12,394 nt of DNA, taken from positions 1 to 12,394 of the forward strand of contig JAEWRS010000536.1 in assembly GCA_023398855.1 (NCBI GenBank), read 5' to 3'. The notes beneath the pieces are model-generated. The model worked only from the letters and a program-made list of their open reading frames with translations. It had not been told where the DNA came from and made no database searches. This DNA is from Bacillota bacterium. GTDB taxonomy: Bacteria > Bacillota > Clostridia > Lachnospirales > Lachnospiraceae. Positions within the stretch are counted from its first letter, which is position 1. Each line of letters begins with the position of its first letter. Positions 546 through 12,394 of this stretch are shown piece after piece. The position numbers and the translations under genes were made by a program.

Positions 546-1193
546 ATGAAACAAAAACGAGATTTATTTTTATGTATTACCTGTCTCCTGATTGCTTTTT
601 TGCTTACCTTATCAGACGGAAGGCAAAATGACGAAGCACTGGCAGCACGGATCGCTCCGGAAATCCTGCGTTTTCATGTATTAGCAAACAGTGACAGCTC
701 AGAAGATCAAAACCTGAAATTAAAAGTGCGCACCATGCTGCTAAATTCAATATATGAGGATCTTGGAGAAAGTGCATCACTAGAGGAAACAAAAGGCTAT
801 ATTATCTCTCACAAAGACAGCCTGGAGAAAAAAGCAGAACACTACATGAAAAAATTGGGATACAGCTATCCCGCACATATGGAACTGGCCAATAGCTACT
901 TTCCCACTAAAACCTATGGAGATATGGTATTTCCCTGCGGCAATTATGAGGCCGTCCGTGTAAAAATAGGCGAAGGAAAAGGACGCAATTGGTGGTGCGT
1001 CCTTTATCCTCCCCTATGTTTTACAGATTCTTCTTACGCGGTTGTTCCAGATACCTCCAAAGATATTTTAAGGAGCTCCATAGACGCATCTGACTATAAG
1101 AGACTGAGCCGGGAAACTCCGACGATCCATATCCGTTTTAAACTGGCGGACTTACTTTCCAAAAAACCGGAGCCTACTGTCCTGAATCCGTAA
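546..1193 (+). CDS. spoIIR: Stage II sporulation protein R (SpoIIR)
   Basis: A forespore-made, exported signalling protein. In Bacillus it activates the SpoIIGA protease in the mother cell, which then processes pro-sigma-E. The 215-residue product has a short N-terminal hydrophobic segment (about residues 7-22) that acts as a signal or anchor. The SpoIIR signature blocks follow: RFHVLANSDS, LKLKVR, YFPTKTYGD, NYEAVRVKIGEGKG, and NWWCVLYPPLCF. The ATG at 546 is chosen because AAAGGAGGA (531-539) sits just before it; the open frame continues upstream to 216 but crosses the promoter and the divergent ligase gene. The 3' end overlaps the convergent TolC-like gene by 20 bp. Its presence marks the host as an endospore former. 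Confidence 0.95.
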   Translation: MKQKRDLFLCITCLLIAFLLTLSDGRQNDEALAARIAPEILRFHVLANSDSSEDQNLKLKVRTMLLNSIYEDLGESASLEETKGYIISHKDSLEKKAEHYMKKLGYSYPAHMELANSYFPTKTYGDMVFPCGNYEAVRVKIGEGKGRNWWCVLYPPLCFTDSSYAVVPDTSKDILRSSIDASDYKRLSRETPTIHIRFKLADLLSKKPEPTVLNP

Positions 1194-2370
1194 TAATCCC
1201 GTTCACTGCCCACTGGTAGGTATCGTAGGCCTGATACAGGGTATTGTATGCACCCTTCTTTGTGCCTTCTGCCTGCAAAAATGCCATCTGGGACTGGAGA
1301 AATCCAAGCCGGCTCACCATGCCAAGCTGATAGGAACGTTCTGCTTTATTCTTCTCCAGGACCGCTTTTTCATAAGAGGTACAGGCGGCGTCATATGATG
1401 ACTTCGCCTGAAGGATTCCCTGATAATAAGACTGCATGGTGACCGTAATACTCTGCTCTGCCTCTGAAAGACCGTCATCCTTGTTTTTCATACCTGTGGT
1501 GGTATGGCCGGAAGCCCCGCGGCGCTTATCAATCAGCTCGTAATTGTTTCCAACTGCCTTAGCCGTATCTGCCTCCAAATTCAGGGAAGAGATAACAGAA
1601 AGATCTAATTGCGGGATTTCTCCGATTTGAACCTCTGTATCCGATGAATAGCCTGTCATATAGCACAGGGAACGCCTCAGGCCGTCAATGGTGTTATCAA
1701 GCTGTTCCAGTGATGCCTGTGCGGCCAGTACCTCTTTATTGGCTGCCAGTACATCTGCTTCCTTGGCCAGCCCCTGCTGATAGCTTATGGTCTGGGCTTC
1801 ATAGCCTGCCTGACTGACCTCCAGTATCTTCTGGAGCAGCCCCCTGTTGGCCAGTGCACTGTTATAACCGATCATGATCTGCCCAACAGCGGAAGAAAAG
1901 GTCTTGGAATAATGATCCACGTTCTTTTCGATCCCTGAATCAATCCGTTTGATTACTTTGTCCAGTTCCGCTGAACCTTTCTGCAATTTACCAACAGCAG
2001 CTTTCAGTCCGCCGTATTCTTCCTGTCCCTTTTCACTGTTTAACGCACCCGAATCTTTTATTGCTTTCGCATTGTCGTTAAGATCCCGGATCTGTTTTTT
2101 CATTTCATCATAGACGTAACGCTGATTACTAGTCTCATTCCCGGCAGTATCGGCAATATTCTGCATGTCAGGATTAAAATACCTTACCCTGTCTGTAAGC
2201 TCCTCAAATTCTATGGTCTGATCCTGAAGTTTGTTCCATGTTTCTTCTGTCATCCCTTCTGGAAGGGAGACTCCCGTCTGTCCTGGTCCTGCTGCCCCAT
2301 AAGCCGGTATTGCAGCGGTTAAGGCAAGAGTTATTGCCAGACAGGCAGATAAATATCTTTTTTCCCCCAT
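1174..2370 (-). CDS. TolC-like (outer membrane efflux family) protein 2, apparently without beta-barrel
   Basis: 398-residue exported helical protein and last gene of the efflux operon. A Sec signal peptide (charged GEKR, hydrophobic core about 8-20, likely cleavage after AYG or AYGA near 25-26) leads into long Ala/Gln/Leu-rich helices typical of TolC. Two hairpin-tip motifs are visible: QQGLAKEADVLAA (about 198-210) and YQLGMVSRLGFLQSQ (about 347-361). These match the repeated tip motif of TolC proteins. Where TolC has its two membrane beta-hairpins, only short polar linkers are present (about 70-125 and 284-305). The start is 3 bp after the stop of TolC-like 1, and its AGGAGG (2386-2381) lies inside that gene, so the two are probably translationally coupled. 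In a monoderm it would be an extracytoplasmic pump partner; the exact role is inferred. Confidence 0.8.
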   Translation of the reverse strand: MGEKRYLSACLAITLALTAAIPAYGAAGPGQTGVSLPEGMTEETWNKLQDQTIEFEELTDRVRYFNPDMQNIADTAGNETSNQRYVYDEMKKQIRDLNDNAKAIKDSGALNSEKGQEEYGGLKAAVGKLQKGSAELDKVIKRIDSGIEKNVDHYSKTFSSAVGQIMIGYNSALANRGLLQKILEVSQAGYEAQTISYQQGLAKEADVLAANKEVLAAQASLEQLDNTIDGLRRSLCYMTGYSSDTEVQIGEIPQLDLSVISSLNLEADTAKAVGNNYELIDKRRGASGHTTTGMKNKDDGLSEAEQSITVTMQSYYQGILQAKSSYDAACTSYEKAVLEKNKAERSYQLGMVSRLGFLQSQMAFLQAEGTKKGAYNTLYQAYDTYQWAVNGIITDSGQ

Positions 2371-2373
2371 ATC

Positions 2374-3525
2374 TTATGACCCTCCTGCCGAAGCCAGCCC
2401 GTTTACTGCATTATCATAAGTTTGAACCGCCTGGAATAGAGTAAGCTCTGCCGACTTTATCGCAAAGCTCTTCGTGTCATAGGCATTTTTCTGCTTGATA
2501 TAATCCAGCCTGCTCAAAGAGCCTAAATCTAACTTTCTCTGGGCTGTATCCATATTTTTGCTTTCCAGGACAAGTTCTGCCTGTGCCTGGTCATAAGCTG
2601 CCTTTGCCTGAAGAACAGCCCTGTAGCATTTGGTCACATCCGAGCCAATATTTTGTTCATTGCTGGCAATGGTCCGGTTCAAGGTCTGTTTAGTTACATC
2701 TCCTGACGCATTTTCCAGTTTTCTCCGATTGATCTTTAAGGTAAAGTTGTTATTTAAAGCAGCTTCCTTATCAGTGTCCGGAATCATAGCAGCTATGCGT
2801 TCCATGTTTACAACCGGAATTTCCCGGATCTCCGGCATATCGTTGTACTTCCAGCCCAGCATAACGCAAAGCTTTTGCCTGGTTTCCTCTACGGAAGAGG
2901 TCAGCTTGCTGATGGAAGCCTGAGTACTCTGAACACTCTCCTGTGCCCCTAAAACATCTGCCTGGGTGGCCATTCCCGCGCCTTGCCTTACAAGCGCGGA
3001 CTGGTAAGTTGCCTCCAGAAGTTCCAGGCTGCTTTTTGCAATTTCCAGTTCATAATTCTGCTGAAAATAAGCAATCATGGAAGACTGGGCAGCTGCCACC
3101 AGCTTTGCTTCCTCCTGGTCATAGGTAAGCTGGTGTATCTTTAAATCCTCCACATTAGAATCAGCAGCAGCTTCTGCCCGGTTTGCCCCTGCCGCGTTAC
3201 TGGCATCGCTGTACGGATCTTCTCCTGTAATACTGTTTCTGTAATCATTCGCCGCATCCCTGTATGATTGGGCATACTGGTCTTTGGTGACCTTTTCATC
3301 CCTTTTCTTATCCATAATATCCAGCTGGTTTTTTTGAACCGTTACATTATATTCACGGATCAGGCCAGCCAGTTCGTCATATTCCATGACATTGTCTCTG
3401 AGCTTTGCCCACTCTTCAGGAGTTCTTGCAAACTCCGGGCTGCCAGCCCAGGCTGTAGCCGCCGGTCCCATAACAGCAAGCACTGCCGCAAGACAGCATG
3501 CCCCGATCTGTTTCCATTTTCTCAT
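2374..3525 (-). CDS. TolC-like (outer membrane efflux family) protein 1, apparently without beta-barrel
   Basis: 383-residue exported helical protein, paralogue of its downstream neighbour. The signal peptide spans residues 1-27 with an AWA|G cleavage site. The two-repeat TolC layout is recognisable. Repeat 1 has a tip motif QGAGMATQADVLGAQ (about 181-195), then LCVMLGW and the linker EIREIPVVN. The second-repeat entry is NNNFTLKINRRKLENA, with tip motif LDLGSLSRLDYIKQK (about 332-346). In canonical TolC the membrane hairpin follows that repeat entry; here only about 20 polar residues (272-292) separate it from the next helix. It starts from an ATG preceded by AAGGAGG. A 129-bp gap and a hairpin separate it from the RND gene. 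Probably an extracytoplasmic partner of the RND/adaptor pair. Confidence 0.82.
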   Translation of the reverse strand: MRKWKQIGACCLAAVLAVMGPAATAWAGSPEFARTPEEWAKLRDNVMEYDELAGLIREYNVTVQKNQLDIMDKKRDEKVTKDQYAQSYRDAANDYRNSITGEDPYSDASNAAGANRAEAAADSNVEDLKIHQLTYDQEEAKLVAAAQSSMIAYFQQNYELEIAKSSLELLEATYQSALVRQGAGMATQADVLGAQESVQSTQASISKLTSSVEETRQKLCVMLGWKYNDMPEIREIPVVNMERIAAMIPDTDKEAALNNNFTLKINRRKLENASGDVTKQTLNRTIASNEQNIGSDVTKCYRAVLQAKAAYDQAQAELVLESKNMDTAQRKLDLGSLSRLDYIKQKNAYDTKSFAIKSAELTLFQAVQTYDNAVNGLASAGGS

Positions 3526-3654: not shown

Positions 3655-6600
3655 TTAATCTGGTAATATCGTCTTATCAATCTTACCACTCATAAGGGAA
3701 TAATATATGGGTAGCATGAGCAGCGAAAGAATCGTGGAAGCTGTCAAACCGCCAACGTTTACCAGTGCAAGCCCCTGCATGGTCTCTCCATTACTTCCTA
3801 TGGCCAGTGCCATGGGGATCATGGATACAACAGTAGTAAGAGTCGTCATAAGAATGGGACGAAGTCTGGTAGCTCCTGCTTCAATCAGTGCAGTCCGCTT
3901 ATCCATGCCGGACCGGTACTGGTTCACCGTATCCACATATAAGATTCCAGAGTTTACCACTGTTCCGATAAGCATCAGAAATCCAAGAAGGGTCGGCATA
4001 CTGATGGCAACTCCCGCAGCAGCCAGGAACCCAAAGGAACCGATCAGGCTGAATGGAATGGTCGTCATAACCATCAGGGAGAATTTGGGTGATTCAAACT
4101 GAGCCGCCATAACGACAAAGATTAAAAACACTGCAATCGCAATCGCTTTAAACAAACCGGAAAACTCCTCCTGCATGGATTCATCTTCGCTGTTCTTTGC
4201 CCTTGAAACCATGTCATTTAAATATTTATTAACAATTTTTTCATCAATATCCTTTTTTGCAGCTTCTTTTCCTTGTTTTGTTGTCACTGCATCGGTAAAG
4301 GAGCCTGTTATCGTTACTAAGTACTGTTTGTTTTTCCTGTTAATAGAGGTAGGACTGTCTTCATATCCGATATCAGCGATATCTGTAAGCGCAACAGAAC
4401 CGCCGGAACTGTTAGGTACCATAATTCCTTCTACCTTGTCAAGAGTATCATAAGAATCCTTAGGATATTCCACTTTAATATCAACTTCCTGACCGGATAC
4501 TTCCATGGTAGCTGCCTTTGATCCACTGAGCATGGTATTGAGCAAACCGCCCACATTGGTAGGGACAACTCCCTCGGCCGCTGCTTTTATAGGGTCAACA
4601 TGGATCTTAATAACAGGCGCCGCATTTTCCAGGTCTGAATGGATTTTGATCAGCTGAGGCATTTCGATCAGTTCGGCCATCATCTGGTTTGAAGCGCTTT
4701 TCAGTTTATCCAGCTGAGAGCTTTGAAGAATTACTTCAAAATCGTGTTTGCTGCTCATATTGCTCATCATGGAGGTTGACTTCACAGTTACATTGCAATC
4801 CGCAATCTGATTCATTACCTTCTTCCACTTATTGACCACCTGGTTGGTAGAAAGCTTTCTGCCACTTTTTAAATAGGCTGTCAATGTTCCATTTTTGGCT
4901 CCGCTGAAGCTTAATTCGCTTCCACCGTAACTGACCAGATAGGACTTTAAATCCTCCTCTTCTGTAACGATGGTTTCCAGCTTCTTTAATATCTTATCGA
5001 CCTCTTCTACTTTAAGCCCCGGTCTCATCTCTGCAGTAATGGAAATCGTTCCCTGATCCACTTCCGGCATCAGCTCAAAGCCTAGCTTGGTAGCCAGTAC
5101 TAAGGAAGCGATTAAAAGCAAAACAGATACAACCATGACAGCTGCACGCCTGTTGAGCAATCTGCCAACTATTTTCCTGTAACCGTTCTGCATTGACTTC
5201 ACCAGCCCTCCCATGGGAGAATTCTGTTTTTCAACAGGGCGGAAGCGGCTGTAGCACAGAGGAACAATCGTAATGGCTGAAACCAAAGATGCCAGCATAC
5301 AAAATACAATTGTATAGCCTAATGGCTTAAACAACTGGCCTGTAAGGCCTTCTAATAGTGCCAGAGGAATAAACACGACACAGGTGGTAATCGTTCCTCC
5401 CAATATGGATTGAAAAACAGTCCCTGTTCCTTCCAGAGCTGCCTGCATATATTCCCGAAAACCGGTACCTTTTTGTGACCGGAAACAGCTCTCCATAACA
5501 ACAATGGAGTTATCCACCATCATTCCAACTCCCAGAACAATACTGCTCATGGTGATAACATTTAAGGAAAAACCCATGGCAGCCATTAAAATCAGAGACA
5601 CCAGAATGGATACGGGAATGGAGGTTCCTACAATAAGAGATGCTTTGATATCTCCAAAGAAAAGGAAAATAATTATCATGGAAATAATGACAGCCATGAT
5701 CATGGTATTCTTAACACTGCTGAGAGCTGATGTAATCTGGTCGCTGGTATCGTCAACTACTATAATATCCAGGTTGGGATATTCCTTTTTTAAAGTTTCA
5801 ACGGTCTTTTTCATGGACCTGGAAACATCCACTGCGCTGTTTTTCTGCTGTTTATTCATGGTTAAAGAAATGGTATCTTCTCCATTATACCGTCCAATGG
5901 CCGCCTGATTTTCAGAGGCTTCTCTAATATCGGCAATGTCTTCCATAAAGATGGTTTTTCCGTTGCCCGCCACTACCGGAACCTTTTTAAGGCTTTCAAC
6001 ACTCTTTACTTCCACACCGGTACTGACAGACAGATCTCTCTTTCCCACACCGGTATTCCCTGCCGGATAGGTGAAGTCAGCCGCTTTGATAGCCTGGCTG
6101 ATGGAATTCATATTAAGATGATACTGCTCCATCTTTTCCGGGATCAGCCGGACACTCACGTAGTTCTTCTGGCCTCCGCTCATGCCCACGCTGGCAACGG
6201 AAGAAATTTTCTCAAATTCCGGTACAATTTTTTCGTTTACAAAGTTATACAGATTGTTCTGGGATGAATCTTTCACTGCCAGAGTCACTACCGGCATATC
6301 GTTGATATTGAATTCCATAACACTGGGAGTTTCCACATCGTCAGGGAGTTTGACAATATCCATCTTTTTTTTCAGATCCGAATACGCTTTATTCATATCC
6401 GTGCCATACTCATATTCCAGCATGACAATGGAAACATTCTCCTGAGAACTGGACTGGACATTCTTAATACCGGATAAGGTGCCCACGGCTTCCTCCACCG
6501 GCCTGGTTACCAGGTCATTCACATCCTCAGGATTGGATCCTGGATAAACGCTGGTGATCAGCAGCATGGGGAAGTTCATTTCCGGTGTCAGCTCCATTTT

Positions 6601-6696
6601 GGAAGATAACACAGATGATAAACCGAAAACCAGCAGACACAATACAGCTAAGACAGTGGTGACGGGCCTCTTTAAAACGCCTTTTGTTATTCCCAT
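3655..6696 (-). CDS. RND efflux permease (HAE1/AcrB-like)
   Basis: 1013-residue proton-driven inner-membrane exporter, typical length for the family. TM1 (about 12-30) is followed by the first porter loop (MLLITSVYPGSNPEDV, TRPVEEA). TM2-TM6 lie around 330-480, TM7 near 518-536, the second porter domain at about 540-845, and TM8-TM12 at about 848-1002. The TM4 signature reads GMMVDNSIVVME, with Asp395 matching AcrB Asp407; the AcrB Asp408 position is Asn396. The AcrB Lys940 position in TM10 is Asn915, and AcrB Thr978 corresponds to Thr951 in RPILMTT. The relay is thus reduced to one Asp and one Thr. The gene starts 12 bp after the adaptor. Substrate cannot be read from sequence; drugs, bile acids, lipids or peptides are possible. 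Confidence 0.93.
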   Translation of the reverse strand: MGITKGVLKRPVTTVLAVLCLLVFGLSSVLSSKMELTPEMNFPMLLITSVYPGSNPEDVNDLVTRPVEEAVGTLSGIKNVQSSSQENVSIVMLEYEYGTDMNKAYSDLKKKMDIVKLPDDVETPSVMEFNINDMPVVTLAVKDSSQNNLYNFVNEKIVPEFEKISSVASVGMSGGQKNYVSVRLIPEKMEQYHLNMNSISQAIKAADFTYPAGNTGVGKRDLSVSTGVEVKSVESLKKVPVVAGNGKTIFMEDIADIREASENQAAIGRYNGEDTISLTMNKQQKNSAVDVSRSMKKTVETLKKEYPNLDIIVVDDTSDQITSALSSVKNTMIMAVIISMIIIFLFFGDIKASLIVGTSIPVSILVSLILMAAMGFSLNVITMSSIVLGVGMMVDNSIVVMESCFRSQKGTGFREYMQAALEGTGTVFQSILGGTITTCVVFIPLALLEGLTGQLFKPLGYTIVFCMLASLVSAITIVPLCYSRFRPVEKQNSPMGGLVKSMQNGYRKIVGRLLNRRAAVMVVSVLLLIASLVLATKLGFELMPEVDQGTISITAEMRPGLKVEEVDKILKKLETIVTEEEDLKSYLVSYGGSELSFSGAKNGTLTAYLKSGRKLSTNQVVNKWKKVMNQIADCNVTVKSTSMMSNMSSKHDFEVILQSSQLDKLKSASNQMMAELIEMPQLIKIHSDLENAAPVIKIHVDPIKAAAEGVVPTNVGGLLNTMLSGSKAATMEVSGQEVDIKVEYPKDSYDTLDKVEGIMVPNSSGGSVALTDIADIGYEDSPTSINRKNKQYLVTITGSFTDAVTTKQGKEAAKKDIDEKIVNKYLNDMVSRAKNSEDESMQEEFSGLFKAIAIAVFLIFVVMAAQFESPKFSLMVMTTIPFSLIGSFGFLAAAGVAISMPTLLGFLMLIGTVVNSGILYVDTVNQYRSGMDKRTALIEAGATRLRPILMTTLTTVVSMIPMALAIGSNGETMQGLALVNVGGLTASTILSLLMLPIYYSLMSGKIDKTILPD

Positions 6697-6708: not shown

Positions 6709-7851
6709 TTACTGTGCCGGACCGGAAGATTCTGTCTCGGTTCCTTCAGATTCTGCCGTGCCTTGTGGTGCCCCGGAATCTTTTTCATTTCCGTATGTAA
6801 GGGTGACCTTGGACCCATCATACAATTCACTGGTCCAGGTAGTCAATACCTGATCTTCAGCAGTGATGCCGCTTTGAACCTCTATGTACTCATTGTCTGC
6901 AAGCCCTACGGTGACAGCATTCTTCTTAAGAGTTCCATCTGCATAGGTATAAATGTATGGATTTCCACCCTCATAATAAATACTGTCCACCGGAACTGTC
7001 AGAACATTCTCTGCCCGCCGGGCAATTACATAAAGCTTAACCGAAGTCCCGGTAGCCAGGGCATCCCCGTCAGGAATGGAGGCCTTTACCTTAAATAAGC
7101 CGCTTGCCTGGTCTATCATTGTGCTTACTTCCGTGATGGACGCTTTGTGATCGGTTCCATTCTTTTCTACTCTTATGATGTCTCCTGCCTTTAACCCAAC
7201 TACAATCCGTTCTGTGGCGTAAAAGGTCAGAGATTTTCCGCCTTCACCTGAAATAACACAAATAGTAGTCTGTGGCGAAACCATATCATGAATGCTGATA
7301 CCAAAGCTTTCCACACGCCCCGCAATAGGAGCAGTCACCTGACTGCTTTCTGTCTGGATCTTATATGCGATCTTTGCATTCTCATACTGCAGTCTTGCCA
7401 TCTCAGTTTTGTCAACCAGGGACTGGTAATCTGCTTCCGCCACATCACCGGCCCCATAAAGAACCGTAAGGCGGTCTAAATTTTTCTTTGCATCTTCATA
7501 GGTGATTCTGGCAGTTTCCATGGTGATACGGGAACTCTCCACCTGTTTTGTGTCGATGACACAGAGAAGCTGACCGGCTGCTACCACATCTCCGGTTTTA
7601 ACACCTACACTTGTGACCTCTCCTGCTCCAAGGGGCGTTACATGGACAATACTGTCCGGCTCAATCGTTCCAATCAATTCATTGCTCAACTCAATGGTCC
7701 TGATTTCAGGTTTTTCGGCAGTTACAGCTGGCGGTATCTCAGCCACAAGCTCTTCCTTCTTCCCTTTCAGCATTCCTGGAAAAATCAGCCCTGCTGCAAT
7801 CGCCGCAATTACTACTGCTCCAGCGATAATGAAAACTTTTTTCTTATTCAT
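6709..7851 (-). CDS. RND efflux periplasmic adaptor (membrane fusion protein)
   Basis: 380-residue adaptor linking the RND permease to an outer partner. It has an N-terminal membrane anchor (about 6-24) and no lipobox. A split lipoyl domain follows (about 66-100 and 171-200, PLGAGEVTSVGVKTGD and APIAGRVESFGI), then an alpha-helical hairpin (about 101-168), a beta-barrel domain (about 205-275) and a membrane-proximal domain to about 350. The last 30 residues are a low-complexity Ser/Glu/Thr tail. At the hairpin tip, Arg127, Leu131 and Ala138 align with the R-L-S docking motif of AcrA-type adaptors (Ser replaced by Ala). The ATG at 7851 is chosen because AAAGGAG lies 6 nt upstream; a TTG at 7857 would touch the ribosome site. 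Confidence 0.92.
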   Translation of the reverse strand: MNKKKVFIIAGAVVIAAIAAGLIFPGMLKGKKEELVAEIPPAVTAEKPEIRTIELSNELIGTIEPDSIVHVTPLGAGEVTSVGVKTGDVVAAGQLLCVIDTKQVESSRITMETARITYEDAKKNLDRLTVLYGAGDVAEADYQSLVDKTEMARLQYENAKIAYKIQTESSQVTAPIAGRVESFGISIHDMVSPQTTICVISGEGGKSLTFYATERIVVGLKAGDIIRVEKNGTDHKASITEVSTMIDQASGLFKVKASIPDGDALATGTSVKLYVIARRAENVLTVPVDSIYYEGGNPYIYTYADGTLKKNAVTVGLADNEYIEVQSGITAEDQVLTTWTSELYDGSKVTLTYGNEKDSGAPQGTAESEGTETESSGPAQ

Positions 7852-7874
7852 TGTCAACTCCTTTTTTTGCCCTA

Positions 7875-8498
7875 TTAAGATTGTAATGGTTGTTTACGAA
7901 TTCCATATTGCAGAATTTCTAATTTTTCCCGGAAGAGTTTCTTAATTTTTTCTTCATCTTCCGGATGTTGGTAATACCACCCCATACAATGTACCAGTTC
8001 TATAAAAATCATGGTTACTACCTTTCCAAAAGTCTCAATACTTTGATCTTTAAGATCAGAAGTATCAATGGCACGATACATGGCCTCCTGCATTTCCTGC
8101 TGAGCCTGCGTATTTTCTGTGCACAGCCGGTGAGCCACACCAAACATCTTCTCACCCTCAACGATGTTTTTTACCAGCTGCAAAACATTCTCCTGTGTAT
8201 TGACTATGCTGTATTGTAAAAATTCTTCCGCAGTTATCCACAAATCGCCATGGTTTCTTTCTGCGCAATCTACCCAGCCATTCTGAAATCTATTAGCAGC
8301 TTCTTCGAAAATATATCCCAGGACATCACGTTTATCTTCAAAATAAGTATAAAAACTTCCTCTCGATATTCCTGCTGTCTGTATGATCTTATTAATAGAT
8401 GCTCTTTCAAACGGCACACGTGTAAACTCCTTTACCGCTGCCTCCCGAATGGATATTTTTTTAGCTGCAGGAAGATGATAAAACCGATCCGTAGGCAT
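7875..8498 (-). CDS. TetR/AcrR family transcriptional repressor
   Basis: 207-residue regulator and first gene of the efflux operon. The N-terminal DNA-binding domain (about 12-60) holds the TetR helix-turn-helix INKIIQTAGISRGSFYTYF (35-53) followed by EDKRDVL. The C-terminal two thirds are variable and helical, as expected of a ligand-sensing dimer domain. AGGAGAGGTGA precedes the ATG. Only 23 bp separate its stop from the adaptor gene, so it is co-transcribed with the pump. It very probably represses its own promoter through the 46-bp palindrome at 8549-8594. The inducer is unknown. Confidence 0.92.
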   Translation of the reverse strand: MPTDRFYHLPAAKKISIREAAVKEFTRVPFERASINKIIQTAGISRGSFYTYFEDKRDVLGYIFEEAANRFQNGWVDCAERNHGDLWITAEEFLQYSIVNTQENVLQLVKNIVEGEKMFGVAHRLCTENTQAQQEMQEAMYRAIDTSDLKDQSIETFGKVVTMIFIELVHCMGWYYQHPEDEEKIKKLFREKLEILQYGIRKQPLQS

Positions 8499-10688: not shown

Positions 10689-11027
10689 ATGAAAAAGTTG
10701 GAAATCATCATCAAGCCAGAAAAGCTTGAAAGTCTGAAGGCTATCCTGGAAGGCAACAAGGTCAACGGAATAATGATCAGCAACGTCATGGGATACGGCA
10801 ACCAGAAAGGCCACACACAGATGTACCGGGGAACCATATATCATGTAAATCTGCTGCCAAAAGTCAAGGTGGAAACCGTCGTTCCAAAGGAACTGGCTGA
10901 TCCCATTATTGATGCAGTGGTAAAAGAAATCAATACCGGAAATTACGGTGACGGTAAAATATTTGTTTACGAAGTGCAGGATGCCGTACGGATCAGGACC
11001 GGTGAACACGGCCTGGAGGCTTTGTAG
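10689..11027 (+). CDS. glnK: PII nitrogen-regulatory protein (GlnK/GlnB)
   Basis: 112-residue trimeric PII signal protein that senses 2-oxoglutarate, ATP and ADP and controls ammonium uptake. The T-loop region carries Gln39, KGHTQMYRG and Tyr51, the residue uridylylated in proteobacteria. It is followed by LPKVK with Lys58, which contacts 2-oxoglutarate in known PII structures. The ATP-site loop TGNYGDGK (83-90) and Arg101/Arg103 are intact, so the protein looks functional. AGGAGGAAA precedes the ATG. The amt gene follows 205 bp downstream, the usual glnK-amtB pairing in which PII plugs the transporter; this is why the name glnK is preferred to glnB. No uridylyltransferase is in the window. 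Confidence 0.95.
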   Translation: MKKLEIIIKPEKLESLKAILEGNKVNGIMISNVMGYGNQKGHTQMYRGTIYHVNLLPKVKVETVVPKELADPIIDAVVKEINTGNYGDGKIFVYEVQDAVRIRTGEHGLEAL

Positions 11028-11081
11028 TTCCTGAAAGGATCTGACATTTAATTTCATACAGAATGAAAATAAACTATCAAC

Positions 11082-11122
11082 GGGGATAATTGCTTTTTAA
11101 GCGGTTATCCCCTGTTTTTATT
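11082..11122 (+). terminator. Intrinsic terminator between glnK and amt
   Basis: GGGGATAA (11082-11089) pairs with TTATCCCC (11105-11112). An inner GCTT/AAGC stem with two T-G wobble pairs makes a continuous 14-bp hairpin with a TTT loop. TGTTTTTATT follows. A strong terminator 54 bp after the glnK stop. Confidence 0.85.
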
Positions 11123-11232
11123 CTTGAAAAAGCAAGGAATCAAAGTCAGGTTCCCGTAGACGGCTGACTCAAGGCGTTAAGCTAATGGTTCTGAAATGAT
11201 TTCATCAAAAAAAATCAGGAGGAGTTATAATT
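11123..11232 (+). other. amt leader region with a hairpin and strong ribosome site
   Basis: No convincing sigma-A or sigma-54 promoter is visible here. AGTCAG (11144-11149) pairs with CTGACT (11164-11169), extended by CCG/CGG around TAGA with a bulged GTTC. A TGAAAT-G-ATTTCA dyad follows at about 11191-11203. The ribosome site AGGAGGAG (11217-11224) lies 8 nt before the amt ATG. No known riboswitch class was recognised. Confidence 0.4.
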
Positions 11233-12394
11233 ATGGAAAATACAACTTTATTACTGAATGTGATTTGGACCATGCTGGCTGCAATACTGGTTTATTTTAT
11301 GCAGGCTGGCTTTGCCCTGGTAGAAACAGGGTTCACAAGGGCAAAAAATGCAGGGAACATTTGTATGAAAAATATGATGGATTTTGTCCTTGGGTCCCTC
11401 TTTTACTTTATCCTGGGCTTCCCGCTGATGTTTGGAGGTAATGTGGCAGGCCTTGTGGGAAATTCCGGGTTCTTTAATCCTTATTCTCTGGCCGACGCAA
11501 ACGGGTTATTCAATGGCCTTCCCATCGCAGTATTCATGATTTTCCAGACCGTATTTTGTGCAACCTCCGCCACCATTGTCTCCGGAGCAATGGCCGAGCG
11601 TACAAAATTTTCCTCTTATTTAGTCTATTCGGCTGCTATCAGCGTAGTAATTTATCCAATAACAGGACACTGGATCTGGGGAGGCGGCTGGTTATCAGCC
11701 ATGGGATTCCATGATTTTGCAGGGTCCACTGCAGTCCACATGGTTGGCGGCATCTGTGCTCTGGTAGGAGCTAAAATCGTCGGTCCCCGTATTGGAAAAT
11801 ACAAGGAAGACGGGACTGTTCAAGCAATTCCAGGACATAATATTCCTCTGGGCGTTCTAGGTGTATTCATTCTATGGTTCTGCTGGTTTGGATTTAACTG
11901 CGGCTCCACTACTGCAGCCACAACAACTCTCGGCGACATTGCAATGACAACCAATCTGGCTGCTGCCGCTTCTACTCTGGTCACTCTTTTGTTTACCTGG
12001 ATTCGTTACGGCAAGCCCGACGTTTCCATGACTTTGAACGGTTCTCTGGCTGGTCTGGTAGCAATCACCGCCGGCTGCGATGTGGTAACCCCTTACGGGG
12101 CCATCATCATTGGAGCCATTGCAGGCTTTGCTGTTGTTCTCGCCATTGAATTCATTGATAAGAAAGCCAAAATCGACGACCCGGTGGGTGCTGTGGGCGT
12201 TCATGGATTTTGCGGACTTCTGGGCACGCTTTTGACCGGTATCTTTGGAAAGGACTGCAATTTCCTGACGCAGCTAGTAGGGGTTGCTTCTGTTCTGGTT
12301 TATACAGCCGTTGCAGCATTTATCATCTTTACTTTAATTAAGAAAACCATAGGCTTAAGAGTTTCCGATCAGGAACAGCTGGACGGTCTGGATT
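11233..12394 (+). CDS. amt: Ammonium transporter (Amt/AmtB), 3' end cut by the window
   Basis: Trimeric membrane channel for ammonium. 387 residues are present with about eleven hydrophobic spans. The pore twin histidines are visible as His169 (GSTAVHMVGG) and His324 (GVHGFCG), with Asp161 in DFAG and the Phe-gate region VFMIFQTVF (100-108). AERTKF and HWIWGGGWL are further family blocks. The end reached, GLRVSDQEQLDGLD, is the beginning of the cytoplasmic tail that binds PII, so only about 15-25 residues should be missing. The N-terminus begins directly with TM1 and no separate signal peptide. It follows glnK, its expected regulator, but is separated from it by a terminator. Confidence 0.95.
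   Translation, partial: MENTTLLLNVIWTMLAAILVYFMQAGFALVETGFTRAKNAGNICMKNMMDFVLGSLFYFILGFPLMFGGNVAGLVGNSGFFNPYSLADANGLFNGLPIAVFMIFQTVFCATSATIVSGAMAERTKFSSYLVYSAAISVVIYPITGHWIWGGGWLSAMGFHDFAGSTAVHMVGGICALVGAKIVGPRIGKYKEDGTVQAIPGHNIPLGVLGVFILWFCWFGFNCGSTTAATTTLGDIAMTTNLAAAASTLVTLLFTWIRYGKPDVSMTLNGSLAGLVAITAGCDVVTPYGAIIIGAIAGFAVVLAIEFIDKKAKIDDPVGAVGVHGFCGLLGTLLTGIFGKDCNFLTQLVGVASVLVYTAVAAFIIFTLIKKTIGLRVSDQEQLDGLD

What the first reader, a model, noticed from the sequence alone, without database searches (positions are those of the whole stretch)
1174..3525. TolC-like proteins that appear to have lost their beta-barrel strands
Both proteins keep repeat layout, linkers (EIP, NN-entry) and hairpin tips, but at the two places where TolC carries membrane beta-hairpins they have only about 20-50 polar, non-alternating residues. 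Lengths (383 and 398) also fall below the usual 420-490. A purely helical tube would be a distinct adaptation to a single-membrane cell.
Basis: partly seen in the sequence, partly recalled or inferred. Interest (0 to 1): 0.75.

Follow-up and report, generated by a model that had tools for sequence, protein, structure and literature searches.

The report
Barrel-less TolC pair in single-membrane bacterium
A Lacrimispora-like bacterium, apparently without an outer membrane, carries next to a pump operon two TolC-like exit-tube proteins that kept the helical tube but seem to have no membrane barrel; related barrel-less tube proteins occur in other bacteria of the phylum, sometimes in pairs.

The parts
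2374..3525 (-). OMFa (P0002, 383 aa): TolC-superfamily protein without beta-barrel; signal-peptide-like N-terminus by eye
1174..2370 (-). OMFb (P0001, 398 aa): adjacent paralogue, also barrel-less
3145..3300 (-). OMFa residues 76-127: repeat-1 hairpin site, helical hairpin (H81-97, H104-122) in place of strands 1-2
   Evidence: composition; length varies 49-86 residues among 36 rows
2701..2709 (-). OMFa residues 273-275: repeat-2 hairpin site reduced to a turn between H261-272 and H276-333
   Evidence: entry-to-tip 75 residues
2950..2979 (-). OMFa residues 183-192: helical tip 1 (G184), adaptor-facing end
   Evidence: mean column identity 0.79; aligned with the tip glycine of 27 of 30 barrelled proteins
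2497..2526 (-). OMFa residues 334-343: helical tip 2 (G335)
   Evidence: glycine in every row of the alignment; mean column identity only 0.61
1921..2115 (-). OMFb residues 86-150: repeat-1 hairpin site, long helical extension (within H67-107 and H113-198)
1501..1518 (-). OMFb residues 285-290: repeat-2 hairpin site reduced to a short loop
   Evidence: entry-to-tip 74 residues
3655..6696 (-). RND pump (1013 aa, ACR_tran 7.9e-202)
   Evidence: upstream of the OMF pair in most relatives
6709..7857 (-). adaptor (RND_mfp, 168.8 bits against cut-off 94.9)
7426..7473 (-). adaptor hairpin tip (residues 129-144), R...L......A/S motif like the RLS motif
   Evidence: R and L in 31 of 31 aligned adaptors, the window's included; RLS motif named in a figure legend of PMC8277102
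7875..8498 (-). TetR-family regulator of the operon

Best explanation
OMFa and OMFb are exported TolC-superfamily proteins that have kept the helical tube and its adaptor-facing tips and have replaced the membrane barrel by a helical extension (repeat 1) and a tight turn (repeat 2). With the RND pump and adaptor of the same operon they most likely form an efflux conduit whose exit tube stands on the adaptor and crosses the peptidoglycan/S-layer zone instead of opening through an outer membrane. Because the two paralogues stay side by side, I think the tube most likely contains both. Shown: homology, absence of a barrel (by prediction and by sequence length), operon, pairing. Inferred: export (signal peptide by eye), tube, docking, mixed subunits, wall crossing, transport.
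Against: No oligomer was modelled; docking, location and transport were not measured. One fetched OMF locus has a single gene (L217) and two pairs have no RND within the fetched region (L225, L226). 9 of 22 genomes with this RND size class have no OMF-sized OEP match, so such pumps may also work without a tube. By column identity the former barrel site of OMFa (0.52) is no more variable than the neighbouring part of helix 3 (0.53); it differs in length variation. In L014 the RND is split over two frames and OMFa ends early. The SLH link ignores kinship. The RND has N for the second Asp in 28 of 33 rows (D in 4, one gap) and N where AcrB has Lys in 33 of 33, so its coupling may differ (AcrB residues recalled).
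Confidence: 0.7

Rival explanations
1. OMFa and OMFb do not mix: each forms its own homotrimeric helical tube, either used alternatively by the pump or stacked one above the other.
For: Both keep two tips of their own; two OMF pairs have no RND within the fetched region (L225, L226); OMFs are described as three protomers forming one channel (PMC8277102, passages).
Against: Adjacency kept through order flips (34 of 34 loci; 11 of 12) suggests joint rather than alternative use.
Confidence: 0.3
2. They are not conduits but wall-bound or adaptor-capping helical proteins that seal, sense or anchor the adaptor.
For: No barrel means no membrane pore; distal ends vary in length; [quoted passage not shown]
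Against: The TolC alpha-barrel layout with both repeats, equatorial motif and tips is kept, which a cap would not need.
Confidence: 0.15
3. The barrel exists but is missed: the distal sequences form strands only in the assembled trimer or inside an S-layer.
For: CusC is described as changing conformation on folding and channel formation (PDB titles); single-chain prediction cannot show strands between chains; PMC8809574 describes a hydrophilic barrel domain with an omission in a C. difficile homology model; the periodicity index does not separate the window from barrelled proteins.
Against: Repeat 2 has no residues left for strands; repeat-1 sites are poor in beta-formers and modelled as confident helices.
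Confidence: 0.04
4. Degenerate remnants of an ancestral outer-membrane pump, without function.
For: The phylum has relatives with outer-membrane machinery (100 of 398 sampled genomes have Omp85 over cut-off); one locus, L014, has a broken RND and a shortened OMFa.
Against: Two OMF genes are kept in 34 of 34 loci at 30-82% identity of OMFa, with conserved motifs.
Confidence: 0.03

Closest known systems
TolC / OprM / CusC outer-membrane factors (Pfam OEP, PF02321)
   Same: Two-repeat helical layout, tips, RND and adaptor partners; best structural matches
   Different: No transmembrane strands; repeat-2 insert gone; repeat-1 insert helical; no lipobox seen by eye; no Omp85 in the genome of a close relative; two adjacent paralogues
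TolC-like proteins of monoderm Firmicutes (Stubenrauch et al. 2022, PMC8809574)
   Same: TolC-like protein in a single-membrane Firmicute, in an operon with adaptor and pump; barrel 'omission' in the C. difficile homology model; one operon (L. gingivalis) with two putative TolC-like genes
   Different: That work modelled one protein by homology; in the sections and passages read it does not report general barrel loss, the length rule, the pairing or barrel-less partners in Omp85-positive Bacillota
Shortened OMFs of Omp85-negative Bacillota
   Same: Barrel hairpin sites shortened; next to RND and adaptor in the five regions fetched for single ones such as L206-L208, L213 and L215
   Different: Repeat 2 is 94 residues in 23 of 26, here 74-75; usually one gene; apart from the window's clade in the tree but for L136, which sits beside it at support 63
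Short-plus-long tandem OMFs of Omp85-positive Bacillota
   Same: Two adjacent OMF genes, one of them barrel-less
   Different: There one partner keeps a barrel; the window's two proteins group with each other's relatives (56 rows, SH-aLRT 100), which points to a separate duplication
TriA/TriB paired adaptors of P. aeruginosa
   Same: Two paralogous subunits both required in one pump (PMC4338810, passages)
   Different: Adaptor, not exit tube

Membership tests
TolC superfamily by homology (Pfam OEP) | OEP profile over curated cut-off | tested here: met
   43.5 bits (OMFa) and 35 bits (OMFb) against cut-off 22, best stretches on the second half of the profile
TolC superfamily by homology (Pfam OEP) | TolC alpha-barrel protomer fold | tested here: met
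Outer-membrane factor (channel through an outer membrane) | four transmembrane strands per protomer, 12-stranded barrel | tested here: not met
   No strand of 3 or more residues in either single-chain model; repeat-2 insert absent
Outer-membrane factor (channel through an outer membrane) | host with an outer membrane / BamA | tested here: inconclusive
   No Omp85 match in G001, the genome of the close relative L001; the window's own genome is not held
Outer-membrane factor (channel through an outer membrane) | trimeric assembly | not testable with these tools
   Only single-chain prediction offered
Outer-membrane factor (channel through an outer membrane) | tip-to-tip docking on the adaptor | tested here: inconclusive
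   Tip residues of both sides conserved; binding not tested
Tripartite RND efflux operon | RND pump, adaptor and OMF genes together | tested here: met
Monoderm Firmicute TolC-like protein (PMC8809574) | presence together with S-layer proteins | tested here: inconclusive
   SLH domain in 12 of 14 OMF-bearing against 26 of 136 other genomes of the family sample, kinship not corrected; SLH is not specific to S-layer proteins

The most novel reading that the evidence does not exclude
In Bacillota the exit tube of such pumps is often a two-subunit assembly in which one or both subunits have no barrel: barrelled plus barrel-less in outer-membrane-bearing lineages (where the long partner carries extra barrel-zone residues, median 300 over both repeats against 269.5, as if to supply missing strands; range 235-345), and two barrel-less subunits forming an all-helical trans-wall tube in the window's family.
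Probability: 0.35. Interest if true: 0.82.

Novelty: new variant of a known kind. Interest (0 to 1): 0.62.

Why it matters
PMC8809574 asks how TolC-like proteins of monoderm Firmicutes assemble without the BAM complex (section 8); a barrel-less protein should need no BAM, which would answer it for this family and perhaps for many Omp85-negative Bacillota. PMC4338810 calls the conserved adaptor hairpin of Gram-positive bacteria puzzling (passage); a helical exit tube would explain it where one is encoded. Paired barrelled and barrel-less OMFs, if they form one complex, would break the rule that exit ducts are homotrimers.

Tried and rejected
Single-sequence searches of the PDB gave OprN at E 0.0071 as best hit for OMFa, among unrelated coiled coils, and nothing of the family for OMFb; the profile of A1 reached VceC at 1.8e-4, OprM at 0.001 and TolC at 0.006 and worse; structure comparison was needed. 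Of the 27 genomes with an OEP match in the family sample (22 over cut-off) I took 15 as OMF-bearing by frame size and dropped 12: eleven with frames of 660 aa or more (G016, G031, G033, G040, G051, G052, G062, G094, G100, G113, G153) and G156 (271 aa). G138, a full-length match, was then left out of the main SLH table; with it the table reads 12 of 15 against 26 of 135. Five rows were dropped from tree and tables: L209_3225 reads as an adaptor, and L184_4013, L192_6585, L211_4479 and L195_259 have odd spacing. Rows of the loci that repeat D and M rows were left out of the tree. The idea that OMFb descends from the barrelled partner of a short-plus-long pair was not supported: OMFa, OMFb, both window proteins and ten further family rows form one group (100). 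OMFb alone is only weakly a group (22; one of its 22 rows, L018, falls beside OMFa), the tree warns of many long branches, and its root is unknown. Extra strands in the long partners are inferred from length only (Mann-Whitney p 0.001, rows not independent). Composition does not separate group M from the barrelled group (VIYFWT 14-38% against 18-35%), nor does the periodicity index separate any group; for M the case rests on length. L122 and L123 in group M look nearly the same. One search read part of the loci on the wrong strand and was replaced; one search stopped with a script error and was replaced; one search came before the job was done. The AlphaFold2 alignments hold barrel-less relatives only, so the models are not independent of that choice; the length test is.

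That pairing and general barrel loss were not found in print rests on nine searches of the held library and on what I saw: PMC8809574, sections 8 and 9 whole and passages; passages only of PMC8277102 (300,000 of its 747,799 characters are held), PMC5007114, PMC4793230, PMC13082787, PMC4338810 and PMC11784454. Subscription papers and supplements were not seen.

Full report
What is there. The window holds a minus-strand operon: TetR regulator (7875-8498), adaptor (6709-7857), RND pump (3655-6696), OMFa (2374-3525) and OMFb (1174-2370). The closest named relative of OMFa is from Lacrimispora indolis (89% identity). Both OMFs pass the Pfam OEP cut-off. By eye, both start with a signal peptide and show no lipobox cysteine (sequence; no predictor was run).

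Length test. Rows were aligned and the entry and tip positions of each repeat located. Entry-to-tip of repeat 2: 131-173, median 132, in 30 barrelled proteins (one locus for each of the 30 genomes with the best OEP matches in a 398-genome phylum sample; all 30 genomes have Omp85); 84-132, median 94, in 26 proteins of Omp85-negative genomes (the 30 loci given less two full-length and two cut ones); 73-81 in 10 further family rows; 75-76 in 22 OMFa and 73-84 in 22 OMFb relatives; 75 and 74 in the window. The one M row at 132 (L128) has a proline-rich insert that does not look strand-like. The tip1-to-entry2 link is 70-75 in these groups. Repeat 1: 123 and 133 in the window, median 137 in the barrelled group, but its hairpin zone has 11-14% VIYFWT against 18-35%. 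A periodicity index did not separate the groups.

Phylum survey. Of 398 genomes of the phylum of G001, 287 have an OEP match and 101 an Omp85 match, 100 over its cut-off. Strong OEP matches (E 1e-20 or better) occur in 71 genomes, 69 with Omp85; weaker ones in 216, 29 with Omp85; none in 111, 2 with Omp85. Of the 189 OEP-positive genomes without Omp85, 63 were looked at (the 20 best and every fourth of the rest): among the listed matches, a start at or before profile position 10 occurs in four genomes (G523, G240, G505, G364); the others start at 62 or later, and the list was cut. Some of the weakest matches may not be OMFs.

The twist. All 29 Omp85-positive genomes with weaker OEP matches were looked at. 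By my reading of the listing, 28 of 29 have on one contig, within a few kilobases, one frame matching only the second half of the profile and one with a full or longer match (G476 does not; in G357 the short one is split over two frames, in G382 one is cut by the contig end, and for some short frames only one of two repeats is listed). I fetched 20 regions of 16 genomes, chosen because they showed both kinds: each holds a short protein with 91-95 and 92-94 residues per repeat next to a second, longer OMF (in L185 the second lies in a 952-aa frame and was not measured), several with overlapping stop and start. G523, Omp85-negative by the search, shows the same pair (L173). Ten regions of the strong barrelled group each hold one OMF; of ten regions of Omp85-negative genomes one (L210) holds a pair. 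So barrel-less proteins are not confined to cells without Omp85.

Tree. In a quick tree of 165 rows 22 of 26 M proteins and 11 of 21 short partners fall in one group (SH-aLRT 96), but 9 short partners fall among the long ones (92) and one stands alone, so the short partners are not shown to be one lineage. The 30 barrelled rows are together (99, with two other rows). OMFa, OMFb, both window proteins and ten family rows are one group of 56 (100), OMFa inside it (100), OMFb weakly apart (22). The window's pair thus looks like a separate duplication. The tree has no root and warns of long branches.

Pairing in this family. Each of the 34 loci L001-L034 has two adjacent OMF genes; in L026 both score as OMFa-like. 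Regulator, adaptor, RND and pair are all seen in 28 of 34; L002, L003, L009, L025, L027 and L032 lack one or more within the stretch held. OMFa comes first in L001-L019, L027, L028 and L032-L034, OMFb (or the second type) first in L020-L026 and L029-L031. In the family sample of 150 genomes 14 have OMF-sized matches besides G138. I fetched loci of 11 of these: 11 of 12 OMF loci are pairs, one (L217, G026) is single; two further fetched regions, L216 and L227, hold no OMF. The other three genomes, G001, G004 and G005, are those of L001, L016 and L019.

Docking end. Among OMFa relatives tip 1 has mean column identity 0.79 and the N-terminal equatorial motif 0.82, against 0.52 and 0.54 at the two former barrel sites; but helix 3 beside the tip is also at 0.53 and tip 2 at 0.61. 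In OMFb the tips have 0.67 and 0.67 against 0.41 and 0.44. The adaptor tip keeps R and L in 31 of 31; the third position is A in most Lacrimispora and Hungatella rows and S in most remoter ones. PMC8277102 names the RLS motif of adaptors (figure legend).

Wall or S-layer. PMC8809574 proposed that such proteins sit in the S-layer. In the family sample SLH domains occur in 12 of 14 OMF-bearing genomes and 26 of 136 others (Fisher p 1e-6; size-adjusted likelihood-ratio p 2e-5 on the 148 genomes with known size). Several SLH matches are weak and kinship was not corrected, so this is support, not proof.

What is known and what is new. Known: 12 TolC-like proteins in monoderm Firmicutes, many with pump operons, an 'omission' in the barrel of one homology model, and one operon with two TolC-like genes. 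Added here: confident barrel-less models, a length rule, coupling of strong full-length matches to Omp85, adjacency of two barrel-less paralogues with order flips, and barrel-less plus barrelled neighbours in Omp85-positive genomes. I rate it a new variant of a known kind. Transport, oligomers and location remain untested.

Noticed in passing
L176-L195 (Omp85-positive Bacillota genomes): Tandem OMF genes, one barrel-less (91-95 / 92-94 residues per repeat) and one longer with an often enlarged barrel zone (median 300 over both repeats, range 235-345, 20 rows with L173, against 269.5 in 30 single barrelled ones).
   Followed up: partly
Family sample, e.g. G107:C4, G066:C5, G133:C279: 43 of 150 genomes carry an RND in a frame of 1118-1680 aa; in most of them the ACR_tran match breaks near position 200, as if the porter domain held a large insert. 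None of the 14 OMF-bearing genomes has one among the listed matches, G138 does. It might make an exit tube unnecessary.
   Followed up: no
L002:5638-8862 and L003:5746-10149 (Clostridium sp. Marseille-P2415): Odd frames: one aligns with OMFa residues 1-348 and then with the RND from residue 282 on; the other is a 1467-aa frame with OMFa at its end. Recombination between tandem loci or misassembly.
   Followed up: partly
window:3655-6696 (RND), residues 389-402, 908-922, 941-955: First Asp of the TM4 pair kept (32 of 33, one gap), second is N in 28 of 33; N at the place of AcrB Lys940 in 33 of 33; R and T of TM11 kept in 33 of 33 (AcrB roles recalled). Possibly an unusual proton relay.
   Followed up: partly
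window:8843-10418: IspE and a GntR-type regulator lie upstream of the pump operon in many relatives too, a stable neighbourhood.
   Followed up: no
window:216-1193 and 10689-12393: A plus-strand frame that looks like sporulation protein SpoIIR, and P-II-like and ammonium-transporter-like genes (named from recall, not searched); the first would fit an endospore former.
   Followed up: no
L056 / G138:C74: Full-length, barrel-sized OMF in a family sample otherwise without one; possibly contamination of the assembly.
   Followed up: no
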